64,000 nucleotides of DNA, taken from Artemia franciscana (Eukaryota > Arthropoda > Branchiopoda > Anostraca > Artemiidae). How positions within the stretch are numbered: the first letter of the stretch is position 1; the number at the start of each line of letters is the position of its first letter. This document shows positions 792-34,620 of this stretch, one piece after another. The position numbers and the translations under genes were made by a program. The DNA is taken from the NCBI RefSeq assembly GCF_032884065.1, contig NC_088881.1, forward strand, positions 864,001 through 928,000. Direction: 5' to 3'. A model generated the notes under the pieces. It ran no database searches, was not told the DNA's origin, and worked only from the letters and a program-made list of their open reading frames with translations.

Positions 792-864
792 CTATAGGAC
801 AAAAAAACTGCATAGGATTTTCACTCACTTTGGCTGAACTACAATAAAAAATGAAAATACGTAC

Positions 865-1999: not shown

Positions 2000-2092
2000 C
2001 TGCACACAGAAAAAAAAATTAGACAAAATAGGACACTAAAGATGTAAAACATCTAAAAGAGCAGGTTCGTTTCAAAACAGTCCAAACAAGTC

Positions 2093-16040: not shown

Positions 16041-17293
16041 TTTATTTTTATTTATTTATTATTTATTTTATTTTTCACCTACACGATACATGCAGTAAAT
16101 ATGGTGGAGTAACAATAAATATAAAAAAACACAAAGAGAAAAATAAATACGCTCACAAAATAAAAAAAAACGGGGAAGACACTGGTGAGGGGGGGATAAG
16201 CGCGCAAAAGCTATACTGGAGAGTTTCCTATGGAGGATCTCCAGCATTAAAGTTGTATCAGGAACTAAAAATTTTCTAACAAGAGTCTTGTTTTTTTTCC
16301 AAGGTGGAAGATACAGAAGAAATTTGCAAAATTTGAAATAATTTATCCAAATTCTTTTTAATTTAAGGTTATTAAGAAGGAGAAAAGCCCTGAAGCATAA
16401 AGGACAGAATTATCACAGAAAGTATAATAAATTTCGGGCTCTACACGTCTATTATACTACCGTCTATTCGCAACAATCTCTGCGTAGTTAAGCTGAATCT
16501 TCTTACCTTTATCACGAACAGTACACTGACGCAAGCTCGAAAAATTGTTAGTAATAGAGATACCAAGAAAACAAATACAATCAACAAGAGAGATATTGAA
16601 TTTATTACAGTGAAGGGGAGTAGCAGTAATAGAGTTATAGGGAAGATACTCACATTTATCTATATTAAGTGAAAGGTCAATATCAGAGAAAGGATTAGAA
16701 ATTACATAGACCATTTGGGAGTGACCCTTTTTGGAACAGCTAATCAGAAGCAAGTCGTCAACATACACAAGATAAGAAACATCCGCAAGACCAGAAAGGC
16801 ATATACCTGAAATCTTATTCAGCACACTAGAAATACAAATCTGAAAAGCGTAGGGGACAGAACACCGCCCTGCCAAATTCCTCTCCGTACCCTCATAAAA
16901 GAGTCTTGTGTAGCTCTTAATTGAAGAAAAGAATTTAAATACGAAAACCTAAGAAGTATTATAACTGAAAGATTGACCCCAGAATTATACAGAGAAAAAA
17001 GGAGGTGACTATGGACCAAACTGTCAAACGCTTTCGAAGAATCCAAAGTATAAAATAAAGAACATTTCCCTTGGAAGAAATATCAGCCAGTAAAGAAGAC
17101 ATAATCCTATGCACATGGCAACAACCAACCCCATGCTGAAAACCAAATTGGTTCTCACCCTCATTAATATTATAGTCAAAAACGGTAGAAGGATATACTC
17201 AACATCCTTGTTAATACTACAAGAGACAGTAATAGGTCGATAGCAGGAAAAATCAGTCAATGACTTTCCCCCTTTTAAAATTGATGAAACAGT
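16041..17293 (-). mobile_element. LINE, 3' half (RT), split by the LTR element
   Basis: Minus-strand non-LTR reverse transcriptase. In order: SILKGGKSLTDFSCYRPITV (fingers), SSKAFDSLVHSHLL (palm, the FDS region), RRGIWQGGVLSPTLF, the catalytic YLVYVDDLLL, and LDKCEYLPYN-like sequence; then a 3' UTR ending in an aaataa-rich tail (plus-strand 16041-16078). Stops and frame changes occur near 17024, 16876 and 16457, so it is dead. The upstream half lies at 32349-34620. The sequence at 17290-17293 (cagt) is the target duplication of the LTR insertion. The clade is not certain; the order ORF1, endonuclease, RT fits the Jockey/CR1 group. Confidence 0.8.
17290..17293. repeat. Target-site duplication, left copy
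   Basis: cagt directly before the tgttac end of the LTR element; the same four bases follow its other end at 32349-32352. A fifth base (a) also matches on both sides. Confidence 0.75.
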
Positions 17294-17528
17294 TGTTACG
17301 GGTGGGGGGGGTTCTTATTTATTAAAGTATTGGATGTGCAAATTGGAACATGGGAGCTTAGTAGTTAAGGGACATAGACTGAGAGGGTTCTATTGACAAA
17401 TCTCTATAACCATGGAGACAGAATCATTATCGTGATGTTCAAGTCTCCCGAGTTGGGCAGATTCCCTTGGGAACGATCCAATAGACAATAGGAACTGTAT
17501 CTGATACCTTGACTCATAGACTAACACA
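17294..17528 (-). repeat. Terminal repeat, outer 3' copy (U5-like part)
   Basis: 235 bp from tgttacggg to ctaacaca (plus strand). Matches 17596-17834 and 31515-31751. It includes the tgggagcttagtagttaag and accatggagacagaatcat blocks. It corresponds only to the part of the 5' terminal region lying after the polyadenylation signal. Confidence 0.85.
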
Positions 17529-17595
17529 ATTATTGAAAAATATTAACAAAAAAAACAAAAAAATATTTCATTTGTTCTCCTACAGGCCGCGCCAC

Positions 17596-17834
17596 TGTTA
17601 CGGGGGGGGGTGTGTGTTTCTTATTTATTAAAGTATTGGATGTGCAAATTGGAACATGGGAGCTTAGTAGTTAAGGGACATAGACTGAGAGGGTTCTATT
17701 GACAAATCTCTATAACCATGGAGACAGAATCATTATCGTGATGTTCAGGTCTCCCAAGTTGGGCAGATTCCCTTGGGAACGATCCAATAGACAATAGGAA
17801 CTGTACCTGATACCTTGACTCATAGACTAACACA
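17596..17834 (-). repeat. Terminal repeat, inner 3' copy (U5-like part)
   Basis: 239 bp, nearly identical to 17294-17528 and separated from it by 67 bp. In element direction it is followed by gtggcgcggcc, the same primer-site-like word that follows the 5' copy. The unit of repeat plus spacer therefore looks doubled at this end of the element. Confidence 0.85.
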
Positions 17835-18304
17835 ATTATTGACAGTATTAATATAAGATGTAGAGGCCAGATAATTGTGAAACCATCCACATCACACATA
17901 ATATCTAGACTTTCGCTAATTAGTTCTACTATTAGGGGGTAATTCCTCTTGGTGACTTTATCAAGTATTGCTTTAAAAGTTATTGATGAAAATTTTCTCA
18001 TATACTCAAAACCCTCCCTGATTACTTCTTGTGAAAATTGACAATCTAATATTATATTCATTACATCACTAATTAAATAGCTTTTAATAATGATTGGCAT
18101 TCTCAAAAATTTATAATCTATATTTATCACTGCTTTTATGATCAAGCTTTTTCAAGTTCCTTCGTTGAATTCGTAATTAAATCTGTATAAATTAGGTAAA
18201 CTATAGTAGTCCTCATGAGAACCAGGTTTTATGTGGTCTAAGAGGTTATATTCTGTTTCATCGTTTTTGAGATTTGGGTTACTGACCGTTCTTCTTATAT
18301 GCAT
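17835..18304 (-). pseudogene. Second, partial copy of the SOCS-box cargo gene (fossil)
   Basis: Part of the LTR element's cargo. Its translation resembles the N-terminal half of the SOCS-box gene at 22485-23533: both have a helical block with an LR.P.II...LI pattern, FS.EV.R and then YPLI. It starts 20 bases after the shared intergenic motif at 18324-18350 and runs into the inner terminal repeat, so only the front of the gene is present and no SOCS box is seen. It is broken. The two copies are well diverged, so this is not a recent duplication. Confidence 0.55.
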
Positions 18305-18323
18305 TTTGTTAGTTTTTTTATTT

Positions 18324-18350
18324 AAGCGGTATATAATCTATAATTACCTG
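18324..18350 (-). promoter_or_regulatory. Shared intergenic motif, copy 1
   Basis: Minus strand caggtaat...accgctt: a splice-donor-like caggtaa followed after about 15 bases by accgctt. The same arrangement occurs before two other cargo genes (19712-19739, 23550-23578). The surrounding about 110 bp (18318-18440) also resembles 19700-19835. Confidence 0.45.
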
Positions 18351-18455
18351 TTATTGCGGGATTAACTTGAGGATTATCTGGATATAGTATTATATTAATT
18401 CTTTTAGGTTAAACGAATTTAAGTTATTTTATTTCTATAGAGTATCTAAAAGTTT

Positions 18456-19594
18456 TTAACAAAGTCTTTTATTTTTTTTTTCGCAATTCCAACGAAATTT
18501 TGCTTCAAGGTGATAGTGGCCTGATCCATTTTGACTATTAGGCAATGAATCTATTTCTAAGCAGTCCTTATTTGTTGGGAGACGAAGCCTTTCTAATAGT
18601 ATTAGTTCTTGTGTTTCTTGTTTATTAAATTTTTCGTCAATATTACTATAGAGAATATGGTCAATTAAGTTGTGATTAGTCGAATTTAAACGAGCTTTTG
18701 GAAATTTATCTGAATTATAAACACTTTTGAAGGCAAATATATGTGTTAATGTACCGGATGAAAAGATTGCTTCTTCAATGCAATTTTTTTGTTCTAGTTC
18801 TTGTAAGTGTTGACAAGAATCAGAAATATATAACTCCTTTGGAAGAAAGGTCTTCCCTATTTTCTTTGAACTATAGATAGTTAGTTTTATTATATCTAGA
18901 TGTTCATACTTAAGCTTTCCTTGGCTTAAAAAGGAGTATAATTTGCTTGAAGGAGTTAAATTTAAATCATCACGAAGAATAACTGGAAAGTAGTTAGTAT
19001 TTTTGCAAGCAACGCGATTAATTTCTGCTAGAAGTATTTGGAGCTGGGCTAAACGTACATCTTCTCTTTTACGGTTGTATAACAAATGCGTGTTTACAAT
19101 GCATATCTGTTTATCCGGGTTCTTAAATGGGGTGAGAATAGAAATAAGTGCAATGTTATCTCGATTAAGGATATTTATTCCATTTTTTCGCATTTCTAAG
19201 GAATGATCTTCTTTTAGGCTAAATTTACATTTCTTAAAAAAGTTGCACATCCATCAATCTTTCCTTGGGTTTTTTGTTTAAATACGCCATCATACCCCTG
19301 ATATTGAAAATAAGATAAGTAGGTATTATAATAATAGTCAGCTTCCACTTCCTGTAAGCATACAATATCTGCGTTTGACATTTTGAATTGGTTAAAAAAT
19401 CTTTGCTTCCTATCTGGCCACTTCAAATTTTCTTCGTTACAGTTGTATTACAAATAAGGCATTGTTTCAAGATACCTTTGAGCTAGCACATTATATGACA
19501 CAATCGTAAAATCTAAAGATTGATTTTCTTGGTTTACTTTTGGCCTTTGACAATTTCTTGGATTTTCCCACTTTCTGATTTCCGTCAGATTCAT
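18456..19594 (-). pseudogene. ANGEL-like EEP-family enzyme, cargo of the LTR element (fossil)
   Basis: Translation matches the ANGEL branch of the CCR4/nocturnin endonuclease-exonuclease-phosphatase family along its length. N-terminal SYNVLAQ; then VCLQEVEADYYY with the metal-binding Glu; GYDGVFKQKTQGKIDGCA; LNRDNIALISIL; NTHLLYNRKREDVRLAQL; a DLN..P.S.LY motif; and near the C-terminus LIDHILYS and GSGHYHLEAKF. NTHLLYN-RR-D-LAQ and GKIDGCA are specific to ANGEL rather than CCR4 or LINE endonucleases. Human ANGEL2 is known as a 2',3'-cyclic phosphatase of RNA. It has no introns, lies between shared intergenic motifs and is on the element's coding strand, which fits capture from a host mRNA. 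It is slightly broken. What it did for the element is unknown. Confidence 0.8.
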
Positions 19595-19711
19595 TTTCTT
19601 AAAATTTTTCCCTTTTTTGAATTTTGAAGTATTAGTGCCGATTTGTTTTTTGACTGTTTTGGATTTCCTAGTGTTCTCTATAAGGGCATGTTATTAATTG
19701 GTTTTACTATT

Positions 19712-19739
19712 AAGCAGGATATAAGTTTAAGGTTACCTG
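19712..19739 (-). promoter_or_regulatory. Shared intergenic motif, copy 2
   Basis: Minus strand caggtaacctt...cctgctt, matching copies at 18324-18350 and 23550-23578. It lies about 118 bases before the ATG of the ANGEL-like gene. Confidence 0.4.
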
Positions 19740-21343
19740 TTTGGCTTGGTATTTGGTTGATGATAATCTGGAAATATTATGGTGTTAATTTCTTTAAGTC
19801 AGAAGGATTTAAGTTATTTTATTTCTATATGCAATTCTTTTCTTATTCAAGTACGGCAAGAGAAGAAAAAATTGTCTTATGCGGCGCATTATACCCTTAA
19901 GAGAGTTTTTATGCATTGCATTATTTATTTTATACAATAAATTAAGTACTTTTTTGTGATTCTCAGATTTTTTTATTGTTATTATTTTGCGGCGCATAAT
20001 ACGGTACAATATGGTGTAAGGAACAGCGCATTGAGTGTTTTTCCAATCAGCGCACCGTAATCATTCAATGGAAATATTCGTTACATATATAACGGTGTTT
20101 TGAACTAGTTAACCCTTTTTAATTTTTAACTAGATTATGTTTTAATTTAGATAAATAATTAGGTAAACGTAATAGTTTCAATTTAATGAATATAAAAATG
20201 ATTACTTATTTTTATTTTTTCTTGAATATAAACAAAATTGGTTGTTAAGTTAATTTGTAATTTTTCTAGTCTTGTATAATTTTCTATTATAATGTTGCAA
20301 AGGAAAAAGGTTAAAATTATAGCGTTTTAGTTTTCCTCGAGTTGTTTGTCATAATTATCTAGCTTGCGATAATTACATAGATGAACAGAAATTATTTGAC
20401 AAAATAATTGGGCTTCAAATAAATATATATCTACCACTGAGATCTAGCACTGTGATTGGTTATTTCTTTAAATGCCTTCGGGGATCCTGCATTGTAATTG
20501 GTCAATTCAAAATATGGGTGGTAACTTTTCATTACTTTGAAATCCGCTAGGCGGTCTTTTGGTTATAATTTAAAACTCTTTTAAAAACGCTACAGGTTTT
20601 TTACAAGTGTAATTATTTATTTACACTCTTGTTATGCGAAAGGCACTTGTTGGGTGTTTTAATTGAAGTACATTTCTGGGTCGTAAAAATCATTCTTCCA
20701 TTAGCAGACGTTCCTCAAGGGTTATTTATTATACAATGCATACATTGTACGTTTTATGTGTTACAAGTCTCTTAGATAAAATGCCTATTCGTGATTTTCA
20801 CTTTCGAACGTCACGGCTAGCAATTTTGCCCTTCAGAGTTTTGTTGTTTTGCCAGGTACGAATTTTTGTCTTATTGTTCATACGCACGGATTTAAGCGTT
20901 CATATTTTAAGTTTTCAGGATGTATATTTATTACAGAATTGACATTTTTTAATGGCACGACGAAGCTAAAATTTGGTAAGATTAAAATTTTTGCGCTTTT
21001 ATTTTTCCATGTTGCTCCCCTTTATTTTATTTTTTTTAATTCGTGTCTGATTTGGTGATAAACTGTCGATTGAACTTCAAATTGATTTCGTAAACATATA
21101 TACTATTTAAAAAAATAAGAATTTTTATCCATATACATAAAAAGGAGTTCAATTTAAAAGATACTCTAAGTTTTTTAAGGCTGGCTTTTATAATAATTAG
21201 GTTGGCCAGTCTTATTTATAGACGTATTTGGTTTGCGAGATGCTTATTTTTATACTTGTAAACAAAATTTTATTGTATTAAAGGACACACATAGGTTAGT
21301 TACTATGCCATTAGTGACGTCAAGAGTTATTAAGCTTATAGCA

Positions 21344-21344
21344 A

Positions 21345-21408
<64 letters not shown>
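21344..21408. repeat. (TA)n microsatellite
   Basis: Pure dinucleotide tract of about 65 bp inside the LTR element, just downstream of the 2H phosphoesterase gene. Confidence 0.95.
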
Positions 21409-21410
<2 letters not shown>

Positions 21411-21494
21411 ATGTTATAGCTAATCCCCATATATAGTTACCTGCTAATTGTATTATCTATTATATTTCCTCGTTCCAAATTCTTCCAGATTTCT

Positions 21495-22157
21495 TTAGTT
21501 GGTTTTTTTGTCGAATTTAATTTCGGTTAATATTTCATAATAATTTTCTTCGTTTTTTGGACCTTGCATAGAACAAAATTGGATACTTCCTGCGAATTCG
21601 ACTCCAAATTTCATATTTTTAAAAACAGATGTTATGGATGGGTGAAGTTTTTTCGCCATCCTTCTTAACCTAGCGACTTTTCTTATGTTTATTAAAGTCA
21701 AGTGAGGCTTCCAGCATTCCTGGTTGGCGAGTTGTATCCCGCTTTTACTGACTTCTTCAGTAATTTTTTCTAAAACAGGACTTAAGCGAGCTTTAAATTC
21801 TTCCTCATTATTTAACTGGGCATATAAAATTTGTTCATAAAATTCTCCGACACCTTGAAAGTCGAGTAGTATTTGATTCTTGCTAAGTTCTTGCTGAAAA
21901 GCTGATATTGCCCTTGTGAAAGCATTTTTCATTAATTCACCTTCACTATTATTTTTTAGGTGGATAACCTTTAATGTAACATGGAAAGTGCTATGTCGAA
22001 TTAGAGCCTGTGATAGACTAGGATCGATATTAATCAAGTAGTTTTGTATCTCTGAGGCCTTTCTCTTTATTTGCGCGCTTTTTACTTGAATTGTGAAAAA
22101 AGAATTTGGTGGATGGTTACTCATTTTCCTTGACTTTCCTTGACAGATATAACCCAA
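21495..22157 (-). CDS. AKAP7-like 2H phosphoesterase, cargo of the LTR element
   Basis: Uninterrupted 220-codon frame; the likely start is the internal Met of MSNHPPNSFF (about 22124). It has the two H-x-T-x motifs that define the 2H phosphoesterase superfamily: FHVTLKVIHL at about residues 60-70 and WKPHLTLINI at about 147-156, in the usual two-lobe spacing. LLDFQGVGEFYEQ and SIQFCSMQGPKNEENYYE match the AKAP7/AKAP18 central domain, not the LigT, USB1 or CNPase branches. Known family members hydrolyse 2',5'-oligoadenylate or cyclic RNA ends; coronavirus and rotavirus 2H proteins do so against RNase L signalling. It has no introns and lies on the element's coding strand. Both His-Thr pairs are present. 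Role in the element is inference. Confidence 0.8.
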   Translation of the reverse strand: MGYICQGKSRKMSNHPPNSFFTIQVKSAQIKRKASEIQNYLINIDPSLSQALIRHSTFHVTLKVIHLKNNSEGELMKNAFTRAISAFQQELSKNQILLDFQGVGEFYEQILYAQLNNEEEFKARLSPVLEKITEEVSKSGIQLANQECWKPHLTLINIRKVARLRRMAKKLHPSITSVFKNMKFGVEFAGSIQFCSMQGPKNEENYYEILTEIKFDKKTN

Positions 22158-22484
22158 TTTCTAAAAAAAATTTAAGTTATATTAACTTAATGGTTTTTAG
22201 GTTGATACTTTAATCCAATTTTTTTTTGAACTTCCAATGCATAATTTGTCGAAAAGTAATACATTTTGTATCATATCCTTTCAGTCATTATGCATTGGAA
22301 TATTTTCAACTTGGAAATAGAGTAGTAAAATTACAGAAGACGATCTATTAGATCTCTTACACATAAGAAAAGAAAGGAACGAATTTTTTCGTGCTTGTTG
22401 GAGGTCTATATTTTTTTGTTATGAAAGATTTACATTTACCGTAAATTAATTTATTATTAACCTACTGTTTAAAAGTAATAGTAG

Positions 22485-23533
22485 TTAGATTAAATTTGAA
22501 CAGTCTAATTCATGGTCATTTGGAATACTTAATATTGGCCCTTGGCCTGAAGTCTGGTTTATTTCAGATTTTAATAGGTGTGGAGTCATAAATGTCAATC
22601 GATATTCTTGGCTGCTATTTCCATGAATATCTTCTATGTGTAGTAAACACCGTTTTAGGGTTTCGGGGAGTGTTAGATTAGCCAAAGTGTAGTGAATGTC
22701 TGTTTTTCCCATCATTAAACGTATGTTTTTTCTACACAACTCCTTTAAACTTGGGTTATTTGGAGTAATACGAACTCTTTTGAAAATCAGTTGTTTATGG
22801 AAACATAGCGGACTTATGCAGTTTATTATTTTTTCATATAATAGAATATCTTTTCCTTTTACTAATTTTGACCCAATGTTTTCATCTATTGTATAAAACT
22901 TACTAATTAAACGTTTTAATTCTTCGTACTGTCCTAGATATAAGTAAAGAATCGAGTTATTAATCCAGTAATAATTGTGTATATTGTTATTTTCGTAGAT
23001 TTTAAAGAGAAGATTTTTGTCAAATATCCTATAATCTACCTCCATTAGCATTGTTAAGAATTTTAAAGGCCAAGGCAACTCGAAATTTTCTTCTGCAAGT
23101 GGTGTTAATTAAAAATTTTCACATATTATAGACGCAATTAACGGATATTTCTTTGAGGGAGTTGAACAAAGAAGTACTGCAAAATTGTAGAGGGCGAATC
23201 TATGCCTGTATCCATAGTCTTTTCTCATTACCTCTGGCGAAAAGGTACCTATTAGTAATATAACCATTATTTCAATTATCAAATTATCACTTAGGATAAT
23301 CGGAACGCGCAGCAAGGAACGGAGAATATCGTAACGCAAGTTTCTTACTGCATTTTTTATAGCTGATTCTAAGATATTTTCGTTTGCCTCATGACTTATT
23401 TTTGAAAGATCTGGTAAGCTCTGGGTTTTATTTGGAACCAAAAGTCTCGTCTTGTAGGTGCTTGGTTTTGGACGAATTCCAAAGGTCTTAGAACATTAGG
23501 ATCTGTATTGTATAAGGTTCTTTTATACGACAT
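22485..23533 (-). pseudogene. SOCS-box protein, cargo of the LTR element (fossil)
   Basis: Helical protein ending in a SOCS box. The box lies about 60-95 residues before the C-terminus: SLKELCRKNIRLMMG (BC box, the elongin B/C contact with the L...C pattern) followed by LANLTLPETLKRCLL (the L.LP region that contacts cullin 5). The upstream about 250 residues are helical and may be degenerate ankyrin-type repeats, but no repeat is clear. SOCS-box proteins present substrates to elongin-cullin E3 ubiquitin ligases. The gene begins 17 bases after the third shared intergenic motif. It is broken in one or two places. A diverged partial copy lies at 17835-18304. The substrate cannot be inferred. Confidence 0.65.
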
Positions 23534-23549
23534 TTCCCCTGGTTAGTAT

Positions 23550-23578
23550 AAGCGGTTAGTTGAGTGGATTTTTACCTG
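23550..23578 (-). promoter_or_regulatory. Shared intergenic motif, copy 3
   Basis: Minus strand caggtaaaaat...accgctt, 17 bases before the ATG at 23533. It is less similar to copies 1 and 2 outside the two anchor words but has the same spacing. Confidence 0.4.
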
Positions 23579-23867
23579 ATTTGGTTTCCTTCTGGTTACG
23601 GATCTAAAAATAATATTTTGTACTTTAGAATTTAAAATCTTTTGGAAGGCAACACGTTTTTATATGCGTCTTTTTTTTATTGTTTGTTTTTTTTTTCGTT
23701 TTAAGAAAATTTTATCCCTATTTAAGGCATATTCTTGTGCGCTCGGGTCGTATAAAAACTTTGCGTAATGCCGGATTTCCTCTAATGCCGGTGTACCCCT
23801 TCGTATTTAGTACAATTTATATTTTCTTCGAATTTATAGCATATTTTCTGGTTTTTATATTTATCAA

Positions 23868-24224
23868 TTAATAGGAGGTCTGTTTGGATTGGTCCTTTGC
23901 AAAACCAATAGCAGATATTAAATTTTTTCTGTAATTTTTTATTGTTAATTGTAAAGTTGTCATGTTCTTCCCTTTTTTGCTTTTGTTCGAGTATTTGTTT
24001 CTTACTTCTCCTCTTGCGGGTCGATATTTTGGGCTGTTTGCTAATTTTAGCCCAAATTTATGCGTGTGAGGTTTAAATTTCGTTAAATCATAACTTAGGT
24101 ACCAGCTTTCTGCGAATACTTCTTTACCATTTTCGTCTTGAACTAACATTGCGGCCGAATAGATTATATTTTCTTTAGCATGAATAATTGAAATAAATTC
24201 TGTGTCTATAATTGTTTTAGCCAT
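23868..24224 (-). CDS. Orphan 118-residue protein in the cargo block
   Basis: Open frame starting MAKTIIDTEFISIIHAKENI and ending SKQTSY. I do not recognise it. The first half looks globular (YSAAMLVQDENGKEVFAESW); the middle is basic (KYSNKSKKGK). The IIDTEF start recalls the first D-x-E motif of DEDD-type 3'-5' exonucleases, and the following strand pattern would suit such a fold, but the later motifs are absent or not recognisable, so this is only a thought. It is on the same strand as gag-pol and the other cargo, between pol and the SOCS-box gene. Confidence 0.4.
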   Translation of the reverse strand: MAKTIIDTEFISIIHAKENIIYSAAMLVQDENGKEVFAESWYLSYDLTKFKPHTHKFGLKLANSPKYRPARGEVRNKYSNKSKKGKNMTTLQLTIKNYRKNLISAIGFAKDQSKQTSY

Positions 24225-25154
24225 AATTACGGAGCAAATTAGATAATTAATTAATAAAGCTGGAATTAGTAACTAAGAAAATTGATATTGAAAAAGTATT
24301 TAAAAGCGACCTTAATATTGCGGGGAGGATTGGATGGGGTTTTTAGGAAATTTTTAGTGTGAATAATAAGTTGTTTTTACTTTGTCGGGTAAATTATCAG
24401 ACAATAATTTCAAAAGGTCTTATATTCGAGAATTACGAGTCTTAATCTTACTTGAACAAAGTAGATTCGATGCCAAATGTAAATGCCTGTTAGGTATTGC
24501 AAGTTATAGCTGCATAAAAGACGTTTTTAGTTAAAAGTTAAGTTGTCTGATGTCACTAAATTTATTCAATAGCAAGAAACGAATCAAGAATATGCCAAAA
24601 AGGAGTGTGGGAATGATAATTAAAAAGTATTGCAAAGTAAATTGGAACAAATTTGGCTTTGACCACAATTCACGAGGACGCTTGTTATCACTTGACTATT
24701 TGTAATTTATTAATAATTATTTCTTTTTGTTTAAGGCTACTAATGAGTTTTAATTGACTATTGTTTGATGGTTATCTCTATAAGCCTTTATGGTTTGCAA
24801 TATTTAATTTTTACGTTAGATAAGAGGACAGCTATTTCTGTAGGGCAAGTGTTAGTTATAGTTTTGTTAATAAGCTTTTGCGTTAAGGAATTATTATTGT
24901 GGTAGACTATGTTAACAAAATAGTAGCACCTTTTTTGATTATTCTTGTTAAAAAAAAATAATTCGGGACCTACTCACAATATTGAGCGCTTTTTGATAAA
25001 GAAGGCCAATTTTTCAATTTTTGATTAGGCAGACTTCCTGAAAAGTATTTTCTTTAGGGATATTTTATTACGGGGTGGTTTCTTAGTGAGACCAATTAAC
25101 AATTAGTGAAAAAAATGACTATTTTTTTTATTTTACCCCAGGCTGATAGATTGC
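24225..25154. other. Spacer between pol and cargo block
   Basis: About 0.9 kb of A+T-rich DNA inside the LTR element with no gene seen. A tattgcggggaggatt word near 24320 faintly resembles the sequence next to the shared motif at 18351, but the match is short. Confidence 0.35.
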
Positions 25155-27340
25155 TTATTAATAATCTAATTTATCTGGTTTTTTGACAACCCGGCCGGAT
25201 CTGGTTGTTACCTTTTCTTCTGTAGGCACTGTTTTCTTCTTCTGTTTTGCTAGCGATAATAAATCAAATTTTTTATATTGTTTCTTAAGGAATTTTTGAC
25301 CGTTTAGTTGTGCCTTTTTTGCTTGGGCCGTTGCACTGTGTAGTCTTATTCCTTCCGAGTCCTTGAATTTATCTGCGTCTGATTCACTGTCCGTATCTGA
25401 GGAACTAGTACTCGTGGATTTATTGCCTGGTTCTTTTGAAGTAGAAGTTTGAGATATAGGTGTTGACCCTGCTTGTCCTTCGTAAATTTCTTCTCCTCGC
25501 GAAGTAGAGGGTTTACTGATTGATTCGTTCTGTTGATTTCTTGGCTCGGGAGAACTGAAGGATTCTTAGGAGCTTTGGGAGGATTCAAATGTTTTCTTGG
25601 GGTGCCTCCATTGCTTGAAAGTCATATCTTCCGGGAGGTGCGGAACTGATTGCATTAGGGTTACCTTCCAAGATACTCAGTCCTTTGGTTTTGCTTTTGA
25701 AACGGTTATATCGTGATACTAGTGTTCATCAGTAGTGTTCATGGATTAGTATTAAATGTACTTTGTCTAGTCTTAATTGGGTAATTAATAAGATCCATTG
25801 TCTCTCGTAATGTTTGTCTTTGGGGCTGGTTGACCCTTTCTGACTCTATGTCCCCAGGAGTTTGTATAACCTTATTTAATTCATCGTGTAACGATAAAGG
25901 TCTGTCTATCGGTGAAATAGGGTTTACTAAATTGTCGGGGAAACGTTTTGGAGGGTAAGGTGTTGAAATTGTATCCGGGAAAAAATGCGTTTGTGGAGAA
26001 ATCGTATAGTCCAATGCTTCTAACTTCTCACTTGAAGATGAGTCGCTTTTCTTCCGTCTCCGCGTGAAGGGGGTACTTTTTTGGGGGGTAACCATATTTG
26101 TCATCGTTAGAAATAAATTAAATTTTTCTTCGTCACTACTATTCTCAAAATATCCTTGTTTAAAATTTAAAGGTTTAAGCTCACTTAGTCTAGAGCGAGG
26201 TGGTTCATTTTCATCCTCCGAGGTATTTGATGTTGAAGGTTGAGGGGTCCATGTTTCTTTGAATTTTGCCCTTTTTATACGACTGACATGCGTTTTATAG
26301 ATTTTTCCCGTTTTTGGTTTTAATCGTTTAAATGTAACATTATCATATTTCTTAATTATTCTGAAGGGTCCTATGTATCGGTCAGAAAACTTTTTGCCGT
26401 CCGATTTGTTTTCATTTTTTAAGTAAACGCAATCTCCTACTTGAAAATCGAGTTTACCCTTAACATTCTGGATATTTTCGGCCTCTTGTTTCCTTTTTGA
26501 TTTTTCTATTTCTTGTTTCACAAGTTTATAAGTTTTTCTCATTCTATTGATAAATTCTTGCTTATAATCTTCAGAGTCATTATAGTATTGTCTTGACTCT
26601 ATAATTTCATTATACGGGATTCTAAAGTCTCGTCCGAATAATATATAAAATGGGTTATCACGTATAACTCGGGAATAAGCTGTATTAATCACATTTGTTA
26701 AATAAGGTAAAGTTTCGTGCCAATCTCTCCGATTTTCTTTTGTGTAAATGCTTAGAATATTAGAGAATAGCTTGTGTCTGTTCTCGATTTTTCCATTGGC
26801 CTGGGGGTGATAGGGGGTCGTTACCAATTTACTTATTTGAAGAAAAGACATTAAAGCCTTGGTTACTTTTGATACGAAATTAGGGCCATTGTCGCTTAAT
26901 ACTGTATTAGGAATACCGAAATTAAGGAAAATTTTAGCAAGAGCTTTTGATGTCGCGTAAGCGCTTTAATTTTTTAATGGCTTAGCAAATGTGAAACCGG
27001 AAAAGTGATCGATTACTGACAGTACGCAGGTTTGTCCTTTATTAGACGTGGGTAATCCTCCGCTAGTACCATATAAATCAAACGAAATTATATCAAATGG
27101 AAACCGGGCCGTAGGCGTTCTTCCTATCGTTGGATTAGGGTAGACTTGAGGATTTTTTCTTAAATTACATGTTTCACAATTATTAACATAATTCTTTAAC
27201 TTCGTTAAGGCTGAAGTAACGAAAAAATATTGTTTTAATCTATGGAAAGTCTTATCTATTCCCAGATGACCTCCCACTTCACAATGAAAAAAATTCAAAA
27301 GCGGGTTTTTCCAAAATTTGGGGTAAAATTGGTACAATGG
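25155..27340 (-). pseudogene. pol: integrase part of the LTR element (fossil)
   Basis: Integrase in element order: HHCC-type zinc region (HLGIDKTFHRLKQYF then NNCETCNLRK), catalytic core (DIISFDLYG, SVIDHFSGFTF, and TTPYHPQANGKIENRHKLF carrying the last acidic residue), then a GPY/F-like module (SDRYIGPFRIIKKY) and a long Ser/Pro-rich tail ending near TTRSGRVV. This order and the GPF module are those of Ty3/Gypsy integrases. Broken in a few places. Confidence 0.8.
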
Positions 27341-29945
27341 AAGTTTGATTTCTGATATCGCTATTGGTCATTATTCTACATAGTATTTTTTCATCTAAAT
27401 CATAATAATAATAATCAATTTCTTTTTTAAAAGATTTCATTTCATCAGGTAGCTCTTTATCATATAAGAAATATTCTATTAGAGCAGCACAAGTATTGTC
27501 TTTCTTTTGATATATTTTTATAGAATTTAAGGAAAGCGGGCTGTCTTTCTGTTCTTTCTCAACCGAATTATTGGTTTTTATTTTTAAACCCTTATTCTTT
27601 GGAACATATTTTGCTTTTATTGTGTTCACTTCTTCGTTTTCATTTTCTGCGGGGGTATTATCTGGAAATCTGCTTAGATAATCACATGGGGCGTTTTGTT
27701 TTCCCTTAAGATGTCCAAACTCATAATCTAAATTCTGGATTTTTAGCATCCATCTTGCGAGTATTCCCGTTGGCTTTTTGAAAGTCTGTAGGTATTGAAG
27801 ACTTTTATGGTCGGAACGCAGTTTAAATTTTCTTCCTATCAAGTAATGTTTAAATTTTTCTAAATGGTGGATAATCGATAATAATTCAAGCTGTGTCGCA
27901 GAGTAATTGCTTTCTTCGGGTGTAAGGGTACGAGAAGCGTATGCTATAACTTTTTCTTCCCCGTTTATTATTTGGGAGAGAATCGCCCCAATCCCCTTGG
28001 TTGAGGCATCCGTTGTAACAACGAATTGTCCTGTTTGGAAGTCGGGTAATAATAAAACAGATTCTGAAGTTAAAGCCTTTTTTCAAATGATCTAATGAAT
28101 CTTGAGCTATTTTAGACCACGTAATTTTTTGTGGGTTCCCTCTAGTGAGGTTCGTTAGAGGTTTCGCTACTTGTGCGTAATTTCTTATAAATTTTCTAAT
28201 ATAACTCATTAAACCTAAGATTCCTCGTAATTGTTTAATGGTTTGGGGGGGTTTTACATTTTTAACAGATTTTATTTTTTCAGGTTCTGGGGAAATTTGT
28301 CCTTGTGTTACGACTACTCCTAAAAATTTTAGTTTTGTTTGAAACAGATTTACTTTTTCTGGTCTACATTTTAAATTACCTTCTCTAAATTTCTCAAATA
28401 CTTTTGCTAGGGTTACTAAATGGTCTTCCGTATCTGTGTCCATAGCTATGACGTCGTCAACAAAATGAATTATGTTATTTAGACCTCTTAATAAATGAAG
28501 TAGGGGTCTACATAATGCACTTGAGCTAGTTTTTAGTCCCAACGGTACTCTTAAATATTCATAAGAGCCACATTCTGTCGTTGAAAACGCTGTTTTTAAA
28601 ACATCCCCCTCTGCTATTTTTACTTGATGATAGCCTTGTGTCAAATCTAGGGAAGTAAATATTTTATTTTTATTTGATATGGAATCTAGAATTTCGTCTA
28701 TTCTATGTAGGGGAAATTTGTTTAACTACCTGTAACTACCTGTTTATTGAGGGCTCTATAATCTACCACAAGTCGAAGATCAGTATTCTTCTTCGGCACA
28801 AGTATAACGGGGGCAGAATATGGACTTATGCTCGGTCTTATGATTTGGTTTTTTTCGAGTTGCTGTATTTTATTTATTAACCATTCTTTATGTTTATAAG
28901 GAATACGGTATGGTTGTTTTGCCACTGGCAGCCCCGTAGTTTGGATTGCATGTTCATAAAATGGGAAAAGTCCTATGTCGTCTTCAGATGTCGAAAAGAC
29001 ATCTCTATATTCCCATAATAGGTCGCATAATTTTTGTTTCAATGAAATGTCGGTTATGTGACTTAGTTCGAATTTTTCAAGAAATTGATGTCTTGTTAGG
29101 GCGTATTCCTTGTTAACTTGAATATTGATATTATTAACTAAGTTTTTTTCCGAATTTTTCCAATTATTAATATCGGTTTCCGATACTATTTGTATCTCTA
29201 CTAAGCATGTTCCTTTGCTTAGGGTAATCAGATCATTTTCGTGAGTGTTTGTTACCCAAATGTAACCTTCACTCTTTTCGTAATTTATAATTTGTTCTTC
29301 ACAGATTACATTTTTCGGGAGATCTCCCAACGGTGAAGCTATCCAAATTTCATTTTTATCATTAACTGGTTCTAACATTTGTGATATTTGGACTCTCTGC
29401 ATTGATTTGGGAGGAATCTTAGTTTTTCGTACTACAAATCCATAATATTTTTCGTTATTATTTTCTTTTATTGAATTTAGAATATTATTCGCTAGTGTTT
29501 TTCCGGGAGTTTCTATATTTGCTAGTTTTCTCCATAAATAGGAAATTTCTTGAATTTGTTTCTTTCTATACCCCTTTAAGTTGCCTATGTTTTCCTTTAC
29601 CTTGTTTGCTTGTATGTTATTTATTTCTGATTTGGTTCTTGTCGGATAGATAAACTTTGAATTTGCTACATCTAATAATATTCTATTGGCTTTTAAAAAA
29701 TTAGCGCCTATTATCACCTCGTATGGAAAATTCTTACAAACTATAAATCGAGTAACGAAATATCTGTTATCTTTGCGCAAGGCTAGGTACACAGTACCCT
29801 TTACATCCAGATTATGTTCGGTTACGATTGATAAATTGGGACAGATATTGCTCATTCGTCGTTTAATATAATTGGGTAATTTCTTAAATATGGATGTATT
29901 TATCACATTTACTGTTGCCCCTCAATCTATAAGGGCTGAGAAATA
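27279..29945 (-). pseudogene. pol: protease, reverse transcriptase and RNase H (fossil)
   Basis: Reading in element direction: an aspartic-protease region near 29600-29945 (ATVNVINTSIFKKLPNYI; FPYEVIIGANFLK); RT with EKNQIIRPSISPYSAPVILV, LRLVVDYRALNK, GYHQVKIAEGD, YLRVPLGLK, the catalytic IHFVDDVIAM, and LGVVVTQGQISPEPEKI; then RNase H and its connection (KFKLRSDHKSLQYL; ILARWMLKIQNLDYEFGHLKG, NAPCDYLSR). The wording is typical of Ty3/Gypsy pol. Several breaks are present. Confidence 0.85.
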
Positions 29946-30298
29946 AATATTTCCTGCATTAAAATTTCCAAATACTGGTAACATATTATTATTATTTGAA
30001 CTCAAAAATGGTATAATCACTGGTGGGGACCTATACATTATTTTGCCACCAAATTTTGGTCCTATGAATTTTGGAGGCTTGAGTCGTTTCCCTGGGGTTC
30101 CCGGATTTCAAGTATAGAGTTTTCATTTGTTCTACTTTGCTTTTCTTGATCATTAATTGAAATTGAGTTGTTATATTGGTTCCGTCGGCTGATATAATTA
30201 CCTCTTATGTTCCAATTGTTACTAGGTTGATTTGTTCTTCCGCGATACCCTCCGCGATACTGATACGTATTGTGTGCAAAATTCTGATTTTTGGTTGG

Positions 30299-31237
30299 CT
30301 AATTACCTCTTGTTAAAAAGGTGTTCCCTCGATTGCTTCTAGGGGCAAACCCACTATAGTTTGTCCCCCTGGACAAACGGTTGCTCGATCCCCTAAAATT
30401 AGGGCGATAATTATTGTTTGTAAAACAATTCCTTGCAATATGGCCTAACCGGTTACAGGTGTGGCACCTTAGGGTTTCATTATTGGTTTGTGCCCTCAAT
30501 TGATTATTGGGGGCAAAACGTACTTGTCTTGGAGGTGTGGTGGTTCAAATTTGATTTCGAAGTGGTTTTGGCAATGATTCTCTGGAGAAAAATCGCGGAG
30601 AGGGATCTCTTGATTTTATAGCTGTTTTGCTTTCTACTGCATTTATTGACAATTTTTGATGCTGTAGGACTATTGAATCTATTTCCACGGCTCTTTCTAT
30701 TTCCTGAATTGCCAGTTCTAAGTTGTTGATATTTTTGGCAATTAATAAACGATATAGTTTTGGGTTGAGTCCCTGTTTAAATGCGTTTAGTATTATTTTT
30801 TCATATAATTCTCCTTCGCCTGAACCGTATCGCGCTTCTGTTGGGATTCCAATTTTATTTAAATATTCTCTGACGTTTTGGGTCTGTTCGAATGTTACTA
30901 ATCCATGTTTTAGTTTGTTCAATGAACTAGTATCGATGAATCTCTTCTGAAAAGCCTGTTGCAATAACTCTAATGAGTTAATTGTCGAGGTGGCTTCTGT
31001 TCCTACGGTATTTTCGATTTGTTTTAAAAACGTCAATGCCTGTCCTTTTAGTCTTAAGAGTAGCATGTTTTTTAATACTTTTAAGTCAATTTTAGTCATT
31101 TCCACAAATTGTCCTAAATGGATGTTTAATTGATCCACATCCGTATCCCCTTCATACTCAGGTAATGATTTGGCAATTTCTGCCGAAGTTGCAATAATTT
31201 TTTGCGCTTTTAATAATTCATCTTGTTCCTGGGCCAT
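30299..31237 (-). pseudogene. gag with nucleocapsid zinc knuckle (fossil)
   Basis: Starts MAQEQDELLKAQKIIATSAE and shows the Gypsy-type retrotransposon capsid pattern (LLRLKGQALTFLKQIE; FQKRFIDTSSLNKL; VREYLNKIG; LNAFKQGLNPKLYRLL). It is followed by an Arg/Asn-rich nucleocapsid part with one CCHC knuckle, CHTCNRLGHIARNC. The leader between the 5' terminal repeat and this gene is about 280 bp. Broken at least once. Confidence 0.8.
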
Positions 31238-31503
31238 ATTTGTTATTTCAGTTTTTCTTTAAAGAATTTTTAAAGGTTTTTTTTAAATTTTATTGGTATT
31301 TCATTTTAACTACTAGGTTCTAATTATTTTTAGATGGGTACACAAAAAACACATAAATAGAAATAAAATTATACTGCACTTAAATAATTTAAAATTAAAT
31401 GCACTTAAAAATCAAAAAATAATCTGTAAATAATCGTATTTGTCTGGGGTAGCAGGCAGTCATGTTGCCAGGTATATACAGTTCCTTTAATGTCTTTATT
31501 GAA

Positions 31504-31514
31504 GGCCACGCCAC
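31504..31514 (-). other. Possible primer binding site
   Basis: tggcgtggcc starts one base after the ca end of the 5' terminal repeat, where a tRNA primer would pair. The same word with one change (tggcgcggcc) follows the inner 3' copy at 17595. The tRNA was not identified. Confidence 0.4.
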
Positions 31515-31847
31515 TGTTACGGGGGGGGGGGTTTCTTATAAAGTATTTTTAAGTGGATGTTCGGATCTGAAAATGGGAGCTTAGTAGTTAAGGGACATAG
31601 ACTGAGAGGTTTCTATTGACAAATCTCTATAACCATGGAGACAGAATCATTATCGTGATATTCAGGTCTCCCGAGTTGGGAGGATTCCCTTGGGAACGAC
31701 CCAATAGACAATAGGCACTATACCTGATACCTTGACTCATAGACTAACACAATTAGGTCAAACTTTATTTTCTTACTTCATACACCACTTCAGATAAAAT
31801 GACTTCAATATGAAATAGCAGTATAATGCGCATCGAGGAGCGAGTTT

Positions 31848-31885
31848 GACTGAATACACTCCTGGCTTTTGGTCTACCTTATATA
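31848..31885 (-). promoter_or_regulatory. TATA box and initiator of the LTR element
   Basis: TATATAA followed at the expected distance by tcagtc, the arthropod initiator consensus. No downstream promoter element was obvious. Confidence 0.5.
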
Positions 31886-32113
31886 TCCAGAATCAACCCG
31901 GATTTCTAAATTAAGCACTGGGTAGACTGACCTCTGAGATGTTGCAATACAACTGTTCTTTTAATTATCCAACATATGGCCTAACCTCCTTACAAAAGAT
32001 TTATTACAACGAGGATTTTCACCTCTAGTTTGTTGACCAGACCAGAAATAGAAATCTGGTTTCTAATTGGCTTTAATCAAAAGTTACATTTTTGAATCCA
32101 ATTTTGATAGTTT

Positions 32114-32199
32114 AAAAAGTATCATTTTTTGCTTGCTGTAAGACTTGTGCCAAAGGTAAAAAGTATCATTTTTTGCTTGCTGTAAAACTTGTGCCAAAA
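32114..32199. repeat. Two tandem 44-bp units in U3
   Basis: aaaaagtatcattttttgct...cttgtgccaaa occurs twice in direct succession with one or two changes. LTR enhancers are often built this way. Confidence 0.85.
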
Positions 32200-32348
32200 A
32201 GCACAAATCCTATGAGATGATGAATTTACACTTTAAAATCTTTAGATGTATACGAGATTCTTATTTTAAAACTTTCTAAAGTGAACGAATGAGGGATTTG
32301 GTTCCGAGTTCTGTAAGGGGGAGGGGGGCTGCTGGTCCATATATCACA

Positions 32349-34620
32349 CAGTGCCACACAGAAAAATCTCAGGTACGCTTGAAGTACATAGACACATGTG
32401 AAAAAGAAGTTGAAAGTGAGATATAAGGAGGGTGCAATGAATCGGTATATGCATCTTAGAAATACCATCTTTATCTATTGAATCAGATTTTAAGCTTTTC
32501 ACAGCATTAATTACGGAAGAAAAAAATACGGGCACCATGTGGCGTTGGGAAAGCGTTGTACTAGAAGGGGGGGGGTAGGAAGGTGAGTGTACACAGATTG
32601 CACTGAATAGTTAATCACCGAAAAAATCGAAGAATGATGTTTATACCAAGCTGAACGTGGAAGACAATTACTTGTCATAGTATCGTCATTGAACTTGTCA
32701 GAATTGATCACTTTTCGCCAATCTTTCCTACTCACAGGGAAGTCCATACCGCGGTAACGTGCTGACCTCAGATAACGTTAATATTTGGTTTTTGTTTTGC
32801 ATTTGAGATCAGCCACACACCCAAAACTTGGCTGACCACATTCATTGCTAGAGCCATAGTTTCGCTTTAATTTTATCGACTTTAAACAAGGGGTACATTG
32901 ACCAGATATGTTTTTGTGTTCATCTACGAATACGTTGCCGAGGTATGGCAGCCTTTTCTGCCTTTTCATACATATCAAAAGCTGGTTATCATAACAGTAA
33001 ATATCAGCTTTACCATTCATAGGTACCTGGCGCTGAAGAAGATGATATGGAACACATACGGTAGAAAGAAGTGCTGTCAAAGTAGAGATGTTGTGCGGTA
33101 TAATTGCTATGCTCCAGCTGCTTTTTTCAAACCACTTTTATTTTTCTAACTAGAAATTGGTTTCCGATAGATCAATATCCATTGTAAATGTCGTTGAAAT
33201 TGGAATGTGGTCAGTATCTTGGCTTGTTAACATGAACAGAAACAGAAGAAGAGATAATAGCAGGTGAGTAAATAATATGGTCAATATCACTTGTACTTCA
33301 AGAGTGATGAACATTAGAAAGTTTGCGGGATTCGGGCAAACCGCAGTACAACGGGAGACACTCAAAAAAATGAACACACAGAAGATCGTGAACTCACAAA
33401 AAGTGAACTCACAGATGATCGATTAATATCAGAATTAAGGTCCCCATTCATTATATACTGTAGAGAGTTTGAAAGTAACTTGTTCACAAGATTCATCAGC
33501 AGACCACAAGCCTTTGCGAATTTAGTCAAGGATCTGATCGAGTATCCTTCACATGGAGTTCTGCAGGTGGTCTTGTGATCGGCATTTAAAACAGCATTAG
33601 GGTAGGTCCTTAAACTCGTAAACAGGAGAATTTTCATGGTCCACCCTGAGGCCATGCTTGAAAATCGTAGATTGAACAAAAGAATCCGAGAATTCGAGTT
33701 TCATAAACTTTGATAGGCCCAATCTTTTATAATCTTTGATACCTTGTTGGCTTTCGAGTACCGTAATATCAACATCGGTCGGAATATTACATGTAATACC
33801 AAAAAACAACTTGGAAGACACTTTTGTTGTAGTATCGAATATTACATTCTGGATTGACGAGTAGAAGTCCTCCGAAGCAGACTTGTCCATATTGATATAC
33901 CACTTGTCAATGACGGGCTTTACGCTACGTGCTTGTCCATGTCCAGTAATCTGCTCTATAGCAGATTTTTGCTGAAGAGGGTCAGATGAGGCGTCCGGCA
34001 CCTTTGAGACGATAACGGTTGCATGTAAATCTAGCACTGAAGCCACCTTGGGTAATTGTGGGAAGCTCAATTTATAATTGTCAAACTTTAAAGACAATCC
34101 CAAGACAACTTGATGGAGCTCGTTAAATTGTGAGAATAGAGAGGTGTAGGCAGTGGCAGGGAGGAAGGGTACTTCCGTAGGTCACTTTATGACGAATGTC
34201 AGAACAGCAATGTCAGTCTCGTCAAGAGATTTCAATAAAATAATTATGATACTGGATTGACTAACCAGTGCGTTATTTCCTTTCCTAATAGAACAATCTT
34301 CATGACCAGGACAAAGTTGCCACAGTAACGTCTTTGCCACTTTGACCGAAGTAGTGTCAAAAAATTCCACTCTGTGCCTTTTAATTACGTCATTCTGTGC
34401 GCCAATTAGCAAATATCTCTGTATAAAATTCAGTACCGGCAAATAAACAAGGACAGGATTTTCGTCACTACTGGTAAAAGACATCACGCCTGAAACACGC
34501 CATATTTATATACCAAATACAAAAACTACAAACGTAGGTTTCTGCTACCTATTCCCTACAGTTTAAGGGAGACACCACTCTCGGCAGGTACTACCGTCCT
34601 TGCGACAGAAACCACCCCTC
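32349..34620 (-). mobile_element. LINE, 5' half (ORF1, endonuclease, start of RT)
   Basis: Upstream half of the LINE that continues at 17293. ORF1 at about 34487-33597 (RHRVEFFDTTSVKVAKTLLW, CPGHEDCSIRKGNNA; then a helical linker). An EEP endonuclease follows with MNGDLNSDI and a TDHIPIS end (about 33680-33150). The RT then begins with INAVKSLKSDSIDKDGISK and ends at VPEIFLCGTV where the LTR element cuts in. Several stops and frame changes break both ORFs. The G..C-rich 34561-34627 is probably its 5' UTR. Confidence 0.75.

What the first reader, a model, noticed from the sequence alone, without database searches (positions are those of the whole stretch)
17294..32348. A 15-kb Gypsy-like LTR element carrying a block of host-type genes
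Seen: gag, protease-RT-RNase H-integrase in Ty3/Gypsy order, then about 7 kb of same-strand cargo with sequence signatures of ANGEL, AKAP7-type 2H phosphoesterase and a SOCS box, all without introns and inside one target duplication. Known: LTR elements sometimes pick up single host genes. Inference: three RNA- or ubiquitin-related genes together suggest a captured set aimed at host control of the element, by analogy with viral 2H enzymes and with viral proteins that recruit elongin-cullin 5. I know of no described element with this combination. The copy is a fossil.
Basis: partly seen in the sequence, partly recalled or inferred. Interest (0 to 1): 0.92.

Follow-up and report, generated by a model that had tools for sequence, protein, structure and literature searches.

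The report
Giant retrovirus-like element carrying host genes
This is a decayed copy of a roughly 20-kb retrovirus-like element that recurs many times in a brine shrimp genome and carries an envelope gene plus host-type genes (a 2H phosphodiesterase, ANGEL, SOCS-box proteins) kept under selection, probably to manage or counter its host.

Summary
Cargo: AKAP7-type 2H phosphoesterase, SOCS-box protein, ANGEL-type enzyme, and a truncated second SOCS-type gene.

The cargo recurs. The assembly, most likely Artemia franciscana, gave 151 2H matches. Ten of ten sampled close 2H sites keep SOCS1-2H-ANGEL-SOCS2. Anchored on the envelope gene instead, 33 of 43 sites have 2H upstream on the same strand (opposite-strand control 0 of 43). 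Two copies measured 20.2 and 20.5 kb between LTR ends. Such copies also encode an envelope fusion protein of about 1,050 residues, missing from the window copy, and a DEDD-exonuclease-like protein. LTR pairs of three copies are 95.6-99.6% identical. Cargo dN/dS was below 1 in all bootstrapped pairs. Two subfamilies share pol and env at 89-90% but cargo at only 45-54%, so cassettes seem to be shuffled.

I read it as an envelope-bearing Gypsy endogenous retrovirus with a host-derived accessory set: a new variant of the giant-Gypsy kind (planarian Burro). The anti-host role is inferred, not shown.

The parts
17290..17293 (.). target-site duplication (downstream copy)
   Evidence: ACTG on the minus strand, same as 32349-32352
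17294..17536 (-). 3' LTR remnant (about 240 bp of the LTR end)
   Evidence: repeat D1; blastn 89% to the 5' LTR
17606..17842 (-). second partial LTR copy, followed by a short leader-like stretch
   Evidence: repeat D1, 97% to the terminal one
17858..18337 (-). SOCS2, N-terminal part only (residues 2-158 of 340)
   Evidence: tblastn 67% to the open SOCS2 frame of L019
18348..18377 (-). leader mini-exon-like motif before SOCS2
   Evidence: read by eye; repeat D2 with the ANGEL leader; the scan did not list it in the window
18456..19594 (-). ANGEL-type endonuclease/exonuclease/phosphatase gene, broken
   Evidence: 81-83% to the 393-aa frame of L019; PDB 6rvz match
19737..19767 (-). leader mini-exon-like motif before ANGEL (acceptor, 31 nt, GTAA)
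21495..22160 (-). AKAP7-type 2H phosphoesterase, frame open over 221 aa
   Evidence: PF10469 9.7e-33; AKAP7 PDB match 1.4e-23
22485..23542 (-). SOCS1, SOCS-box protein, broken
   Evidence: PF07525 1.7e-05; 85% to the 347-aa frame of L018
23576..23603 (-). leader mini-exon-like motif before SOCS1 (acceptor, 28 nt, GTAA)
23702..24331 (-). ORFd, DEDD 3'-5' exonuclease-like protein, broken
   Evidence: 57-79% pieces to the frame of L018; leading fold hits are mostly DEDD nucleases, on a weak model
25158..25565 (-). ORFx: C-terminal tail of the pol frame in other copies
   Evidence: one 1649-aa frame with pol in L016, L018, L020, L021
25739..29921 (-). pol: protease, RT, RNase H, integrase, broken into several frames
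   Evidence: frames; Pfam on the open frame of L018
30065..31258 (-). gag, broken
   Evidence: PF03732 23.7 bits, just under 24.1; 26.0 in L037; zf-CCHC in relatives; tblastn
31515..32348 (-). 5' LTR
   Evidence: 83% over 784 columns to L023; ends read
32349..32352 (.). target-site duplication (upstream copy)

Best explanation
The window holds a decayed, deleted copy of a giant (about 20 kb) Ty3/Gypsy endogenous retrovirus of brine shrimp. Shown: less damaged copies have LTR-gag-pol-DEDD-like ORF-SOCS1-2H-(ANGEL-SOCS2)-env-LTR; the cargo recurs at tens of sites, is open in many copies and under purifying selection; ANGEL is an intronless relative of a gene that matches the same genome in separate exon-like pieces. 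Inferred: the LTR drives one genomic RNA, and cargo and env are made from spliced RNAs using acceptor- and donor-like signals seen before SOCS1, 2H (acceptor only), ANGEL and SOCS2. The cargo proteins act as accessory factors: the 2H enzyme hydrolyses 2'-5'-linked signal nucleotides, as viral AKAP7-like enzymes do; the SOCS-box proteins bring host factors to an Elongin-Cullin 5 ligase, as HIV Vif does; ANGEL and the DEDD-like protein act on RNA ends.
For: Recurrence: 10 of 10 sampled 2H sites keep SOCS1-2H-ANGEL-SOCS2, 9 of 10 with integrase in the fetched stretch. Of 43 env places, 33 have 2H and 33 have SOCS upstream on the same strand, and 38 have at least one listed cargo gene; opposite-strand control for 2H 0 of 43. 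LTR pairs of 95.6%, 98.4% and 99.6% (partial) and a CGTG/CGTG duplication. Open frames: SOCS1 347 aa, 2H 227, ANGEL 393, SOCS2 340, env over 1,000 (6 of the 10 copies). Env to PDB 9w4d 'fusion protein' at 1.6e-14. dN/dS upper bootstrap limits below 1 in 16 of 16 pairs. Exon-like ANGEL gene 64-71% identical. Leader motifs before SOCS1, ANGEL and SOCS2.
Against: No expression, protein or infection data. Many copies are broken or rearranged (for example SOCS1 interrupted in L011/L012; a 551-bp repeat in L009/L010). SOCS2 is below the Pfam cut-off (19.4 against 23.5). No Pfam env family matched. The DEDD call rests on a weak model (mean pLDDT 60.7; best Foldseek E 2.5e-3) and a profile search of PDB sequences found nothing (best E 0.3). 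The leader pattern was set after I had seen the leaders, the scanned copies are related, and base shuffles reached 3 at most, the window's own count. Close ANGEL and SOCS1 pairs reach dN/dS 0.72-0.74. The ten sites were chosen by their 2H hit; the gag search that would count cargo-free copies did not complete; 5 of 43 env places have no listed cargo.
Confidence: 0.75

Rival explanations
1. The cargo serves the element's own replication (RNA end processing, RNP assembly) rather than countering host defence.
For: ANGEL and DEDD-like proteins are RNA-end enzymes by kinship; the rotifer study proposes such auxiliary roles for DEDDy ORFs (PMC5408684, passages). Purifying selection fits this equally well.
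Against: It gives no ready role for two SOCS-type paralogues, and gene content varies (ANGEL absent, an extra SOCS in one copy of subfamily 2), which is more typical of accessory than of core replication genes.
Confidence: 0.3
2. Passive capture: processed host transcripts picked up by template switching and carried as neutral passengers.
For: ANGEL is intronless and related to an exon-split gene. The rotifer paper found no significant departure from neutrality for its ORFs. Some pairs are weakly constrained (ANGEL 0.48, upper limit 0.81; close pairs up to 0.74).
Against: dN/dS well below 1 for 2H and SOCS1, open frames in diverged subfamilies, fixed order at tens of sites.
Confidence: 0.06
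3. Assembly chimaera or nested insertions that only look like one element.
For: Repeats of this length are hard to assemble; raw reads were not available.
Against: Same architecture at many separate places, matching terminal duplications at the window and the C14:4.52M copy, an empty site that gives an open frame, and homologues of 2H, SOCS1 and ORFd on other ENA and JGI contigs.
Confidence: 0.02

Closest known systems
Burro / GYPSM1 giant Gypsy elements of planarians (PMC6431247, passages)
   Same: Giant Gypsy-like LTR elements with env homology and accessory or host-type domains (BIR, BCL2-like, MATH-TRAF, ankyrin); thought to represent integrated proviruses
   Different: Burro exceeds 30 kb with a huge polyprotein; the Artemia element keeps separate genes and a different set (2H, ANGEL, SOCS box)
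Bdelloid rotifer LTR elements Vesta/Juno/TelKA with extra ORF3 (PMC5408684, passages)
   Same: Extra ORFs incl. DEDDy exonuclease and, in another lineage, a fusion env; ORF types shared between element lineages
   Different: Chiefly one ORF3 per element there; here DEDD-like, SOCS, 2H, often ANGEL, and env occur together
Insect Gypsy endogenous retroviruses with env (PMC12992720, search listing only)
   Same: infectious-type LTR elements that encode an envelope (abstract start)
   Different: Usually under 10 kb and without such accessory genes (recalled); RT phylogeny not tested here
Viral AKAP7-like 2H phosphodiesterases of nidoviruses and rotaviruses (PMC10835031, passages)
   Same: Recurrent viral capture of an AKAP7-like enzyme; two HxS/T motifs
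   Different: RNA viruses opposing OAS-RNase L; here a retroelement of an arthropod, target pathway unknown; the paper has no occurrence of 'retrotrans', 'arthropod', 'invertebrate' or 'crustacea' in its main text
HIV-1 Vif (PMC2597746, abstract start in the listing)
   Same: recruitment of Cullin 5-Elongin B-Elongin C
   Different: No sequence kinship tested; a works-like comparison only

Membership tests
Ty3/Gypsy (Metaviridae) | protease-RT-RNase H-integrase order | tested here: met
   L018 pol frame: RVP (18.3 bits, below 20.7), RVT_1 93.3, RNase H 112.8, H2C2 49, rve 43.3, in that order
Ty3/Gypsy (Metaviridae) | LTRs with TG...CA ends and short target duplication | tested here: met
   window ACTG/ACTG, C14:4.52M CGTG/CGTG; C7 ATAG/ATAT is imperfect; C14:4.06M seen on one side only
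Ty3/Gypsy (Metaviridae) | RT phylogeny within the group | not tested
   no tree built
Env-bearing Gypsy endogenous retrovirus | envelope fusion protein gene after pol | tested here: met
   1045-1079 aa frames; PDB 9w4d 'fusion protein' 1.6e-14; no Pfam env family; absent from the window copy
Env-bearing Gypsy endogenous retrovirus | infectious particles | not testable with these tools
   no experimental data
AKAP7-type 2H phosphoesterase | AKAP7_NLS domain over cut-off with two HxT motifs | tested here: met
   114.2-133 bits against 24.4; HVTL and HLTL read in the translation
ANGEL / CCR4-type EEP | EEP domain with closest match to angel homolog 2 | tested here: met
   PF03372 58.7 bits; 6rvz 7.8e-60 over residues 38-390; the broken window frame has no Pfam match
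SOCS-box protein (Elongin-Cullin 5 receptor) | SOCS box over cut-off | tested here: met
   SOCS1 25.4-29.8 bits against 23.5; SOCS2 and the extra SOCS fall below it (19.4, 19.7)
SOCS-box protein (Elongin-Cullin 5 receptor) | Elongin C / Cullin 5 binding | not testable with these tools
   motif reading only (LCRxxIR and LPxxL; names recalled)
DEDD 3'-5' exonuclease | DEDD fold and acidic motifs | tested here: inconclusive
   IIDTEF, QTDL and HPLxEI largely conserved; top fold hits Orn, RNase AS-like, Exo I, CRN-4 with E 2.5e-3 or worse; no Pfam match at E 0.01 and no PDB profile hit

The most novel reading that the evidence does not exclude
A complex, lentivirus-like accessory strategy evolved independently in an invertebrate Gypsy retrovirus: a swappable, splice-ready cassette carries Vif-like Cullin 5 adaptors plus a 2H enzyme (and ANGEL) that erases 2'-5'-linked immune nucleotides, implying that brine shrimp restrict retroelements through such a nucleotide signal and through degradable restriction factors.
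Probability: 0.35. Interest if true: 0.93.

Novelty: new variant of a known kind. Interest (0 to 1): 0.83.

Why it matters
LTR elements are usually seen as lean. Here one lineage keeps several host-type genes and an envelope gene under selection, in copies with LTRs up to 99.6% identical, with cargo that differs between subfamilies far more than the backbone does. That makes a testable claim about which pathways an arthropod uses against its retroelements, and it would extend viral capture of AKAP7-like enzymes from RNA viruses to retroelements.

Tried and rejected
Led nowhere: viral-contig scans with 2H and env, which reach close relatives only, found none. The SOCS model was too poor to interpret (mean pLDDT 39.7). 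NCBIfam gave nothing usable for env, ORFd, SOCS1 or SOCS2, and PHROGs nothing for env. Rfam found nothing in the window. A profile of ORFd found no PDB sequence (best E 0.3). Paper searches: LTR retrotransposon with 2H phosphoesterase, and retrotransposon with AKAP7 and SOCS box, found 0 papers each; Artemia with LTR retrotransposon and Gypsy found 3, none of them about such an element by title; LTR retrotransposon with SOCS box found 9, 6 listed, none by title or abstract start; ANGEL2 with retrovirus found 1, unrelated by title. PMC10827361 was read in passages and has no occurrence of Gypsy or LTR.

Considered and rejected: passive capture and assembly chimaera (see rivals); an LTR of only 237 bp (my first reading), replaced by about 834 bp.

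Not answered: the gag search of the own genome, so cargo-free copies are not counted. Source genes for 2H and SOCS were not found; no search of their own was made for them.
Full report
What is in the window. On the minus strand at 17294-32348 lies one LTR element. Its ends are exact: the 5' LTR starts at 32348, the 3' LTR remnant ends at 17294, and both are flanked by ACTG. Removing the insert and one ACTG gives a 175-codon open frame across the site. By eye it resembles LINE reverse transcriptase, although Pfam gave it 0 families; a nearby frame at 16457-16948 matches RVT_1. Gag, protease, RT, RNase H and integrase stand in Gypsy order. Downstream come a DEDD-like ORF, SOCS1, an open 221-aa 2H frame, ANGEL, and a SOCS2 cut at residue 158, just where the LTR remnant begins.

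The genome. The assembly has 1,270,528,402 bases in 6,468 contigs. PMC11492255 (passages) reports a 1.27-Gb Artemia franciscana assembly with 6,486 scaffolds and 21 chromosomes. The size fits and the scaffold counts differ by 18, so the species is likely A. franciscana. Of 15 protein relatives of 2H, the 3 that bear a name are all from that species, at 51-79% identity.

Counts. Matches given: 2H 151 (150 listed), ANGEL 108, SOCS1 119, env 45; the tool calls counts of repeats lower bounds. Four SOCS rows and two env rows were merged as pieces of places already typed. Of the 108 ANGEL rows I merged pieces and left out the weak ones, among them rows at C909, C18:21.2M, C5186, C21:2.9M, C1:5.9M, C7:17.7M, C19:3.8M, C250 and three rows of 28% identity, so ANGEL counts are for the stronger matches only.

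Order. I fetched ten 2H sites of the close kind (80-85% identical to the window over 2H), two pieces each. All 10 carry the DEDD-like ORF, SOCS1, 2H, ANGEL and SOCS2 in one order and strand; some are rearranged (SOCS1 interrupted at C18:34.2M, a repeat at C4:32.6M). 9 of 10 show integrase; C6:18.5M does not within about 5.1 kb. These sites were chosen by their 2H hit, so env is the fairer anchor. Of 43 env places, 33 have 2H within 10 kb upstream on the same strand, 33 have SOCS within 12 kb and 18 have ANGEL within 6 kb. Opposite-strand controls were 0 of 43 for 2H near env and 0 of 150 for SOCS near 2H. Of 150 2H places, 86 have SOCS within 5 kb upstream, 36 have ANGEL within 6 kb downstream and 33 have env within 10 kb; 15 have all three and 15 have SOCS and env but no ANGEL. 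Of the ten env places without a listed 2H, five have SOCS or ANGEL upstream and five have no listed cargo, one of these with only 652 bases of contig upstream.

Fuller copies. In 6 of the 10 copies a frame of 1069-1079 aa follows SOCS2; in L019 it is broken to 699 aa, in L009 a 502-aa frame runs to the edge, and in L011 and L023 none is that long. The two subfamily-2 copies have 1045-aa frames. Two of these frames were compared with PDB and match 9w4d, labelled 'fusion protein', at 1.6e-14 and 2.3e-14 over about 360 residues, with no Pfam env family. I recall that Gypsy envelope proteins resemble baculovirus fusion proteins; the call does not name the organism. LTR pairs: C14:4.52M 98.4% over 1377 columns, C7:6.5M 95.6% over 900, C14:4.06M 99.6% over 759 (cut by the end of the fetched piece); C12:34.8M gave none in its pieces. 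Lengths between outer LTR ends are 20,476 and 20,203 bp. Six ANGEL frames on six contigs, the query's own among them, are identical and without stops.

Two subfamilies. Against the C7 copy, the C14:4.52M copy has pol at 90.5% and env at 89.0% amino-acid identity, but SOCS1 at 44.9% and 2H at 53.6%. Neither it nor the C15:22.65M copy has a significant ANGEL match, and the C15 copy has an extra SOCS gene. Uncorrected synonymous difference is 0.30 for pol, 0.475 for env, 0.68 for the DEDD-like ORF, 0.74 for SOCS1 and 0.73 for 2H. In windows it runs from 0.04 to 0.62 along pol and 0.19 to 0.79 along env. One history with an even rate does not readily give this pattern; I infer mosaic elements and cassette exchange by template switching.

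Selection. Nei-Gojobori dN/dS with codon bootstrap, 16 pairs: 2H 0.16-0.24 over six pairs, highest upper limit 0.65; SOCS1 0.20 and 0.24; SOCS2 0.35; ANGEL 0.26, 0.33 and 0.48 between copies and 0.17 against the host-like exon; env 0.26; pol 0.13; DEDD-like 0.07 with saturated dS. All 16 upper limits are below 1. Close pairs that I did not bootstrap run higher: SOCS1 0.74, ANGEL 0.59 and 0.72, 2H 0.41. So 2H and SOCS1 are clearly constrained over longer distances, ANGEL less so.

Origin. An ANGEL gene at C7:58.29M matches in three pieces (residues 41-98, 98-337, 337-391) at 64-71% identity, while the element ANGEL is uninterrupted. I take it for the host's own spliced gene; there is no transcript evidence. 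Capture from a processed transcript fits. dS to its large exon is about 1, so capture is not recent. Sources of 2H and SOCS were not found.

Proteins. Open ANGEL aligns with angel homolog 2 (6rvz) over residues 38-390 at 7.8e-60. 2H keeps both HxT motifs and matches AKAP7 structures. SOCS1 passes the SOCS-box cut-off in the window and in both subfamilies; SOCS2 and the extra SOCS do not. The DEDD-like protein has conserved IIDTEF, QTDL and HPLxEI stretches and fold hits led by oligoribonuclease, RNase AS-like proteins, Exo I and CRN-4, on a weak model.

Expression signals. A motif of acceptor, 26-33 nt and a GTAA donor stands before SOCS1 in both subfamilies, and before ANGEL and SOCS2: 8 sense matches, all at these genes, against 2 antisense in eight related pieces; in the window 3 against 0, one of the 3 lying inside ORFx; 0.23 on average and 3 at most in 200 base shuffles. 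I set the pattern after seeing the leaders, so this is suggestive only. In the four 2H leaders printed there is an acceptor-like stretch only; before env it is seen in two of three, and before the DEDD-like ORF I saw none clearly. I read this as splicing for separate cargo messages.

How it probably works. Viral AKAP7-like enzymes inhibit OAS-RNase L and were captured repeatedly by nidoviruses and rotaviruses (PMC10835031, passages). HIV Vif recruits a Cullin 5-Elongin ligase (PMC2597746, abstract start). By analogy, the 2H enzyme would erase a 2'-5'-linked immune nucleotide and the SOCS proteins would direct host factors to degradation. Arthropods lack RNase L but make 2'-5'-linked cyclic dinucleotides (recalled), my favoured substrate. 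None of this is shown.

Compared with what is known. Giant Gypsy elements with env homology and accessory domains exist in planarians (PMC6431247, passages), and rotifer LTR elements carry DEDDy or env ORFs (PMC5408684, passages). The kind is therefore known. The set of 2H, ANGEL, SOCS box, DEDD-like and env in one element was not seen in the titles and abstract starts listed by the searches (20 of 322 listed; 6 of 9 listed); the library omits most subscription journals.

Noticed in passing
window 16457-16948 and the flanks of the element: The element sits in or beside a LINE-like reverse transcriptase (RVT_1 8.7e-11); the empty site gives a 175-codon open frame.
   Followed up: partly
G000 C13:28.21M and C13:28.23M: Two 2H sites 16,355 bp apart on one strand; in L014 a second protease-RT start follows the first env, so this looks like a tandem pair of elements.
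   Followed up: no
G000 C3608:246-315 kb: Ten listed 2H matches on one strand within about 68 kb, many of them partial or with stops.
   Followed up: no
window 839-2035 (-), 39885-40604 (+), 42894-43838 (+): Long open frames outside the element; only the first has a weak, below-cut-off leucine-rich-repeat match.
   Followed up: partly
G000 C8:43436650, C1:23211425, C5:16832758: ANGEL-like matches at 45-56% identity with stops and no listed 2H nearby; possibly older or different element families.
   Followed up: no
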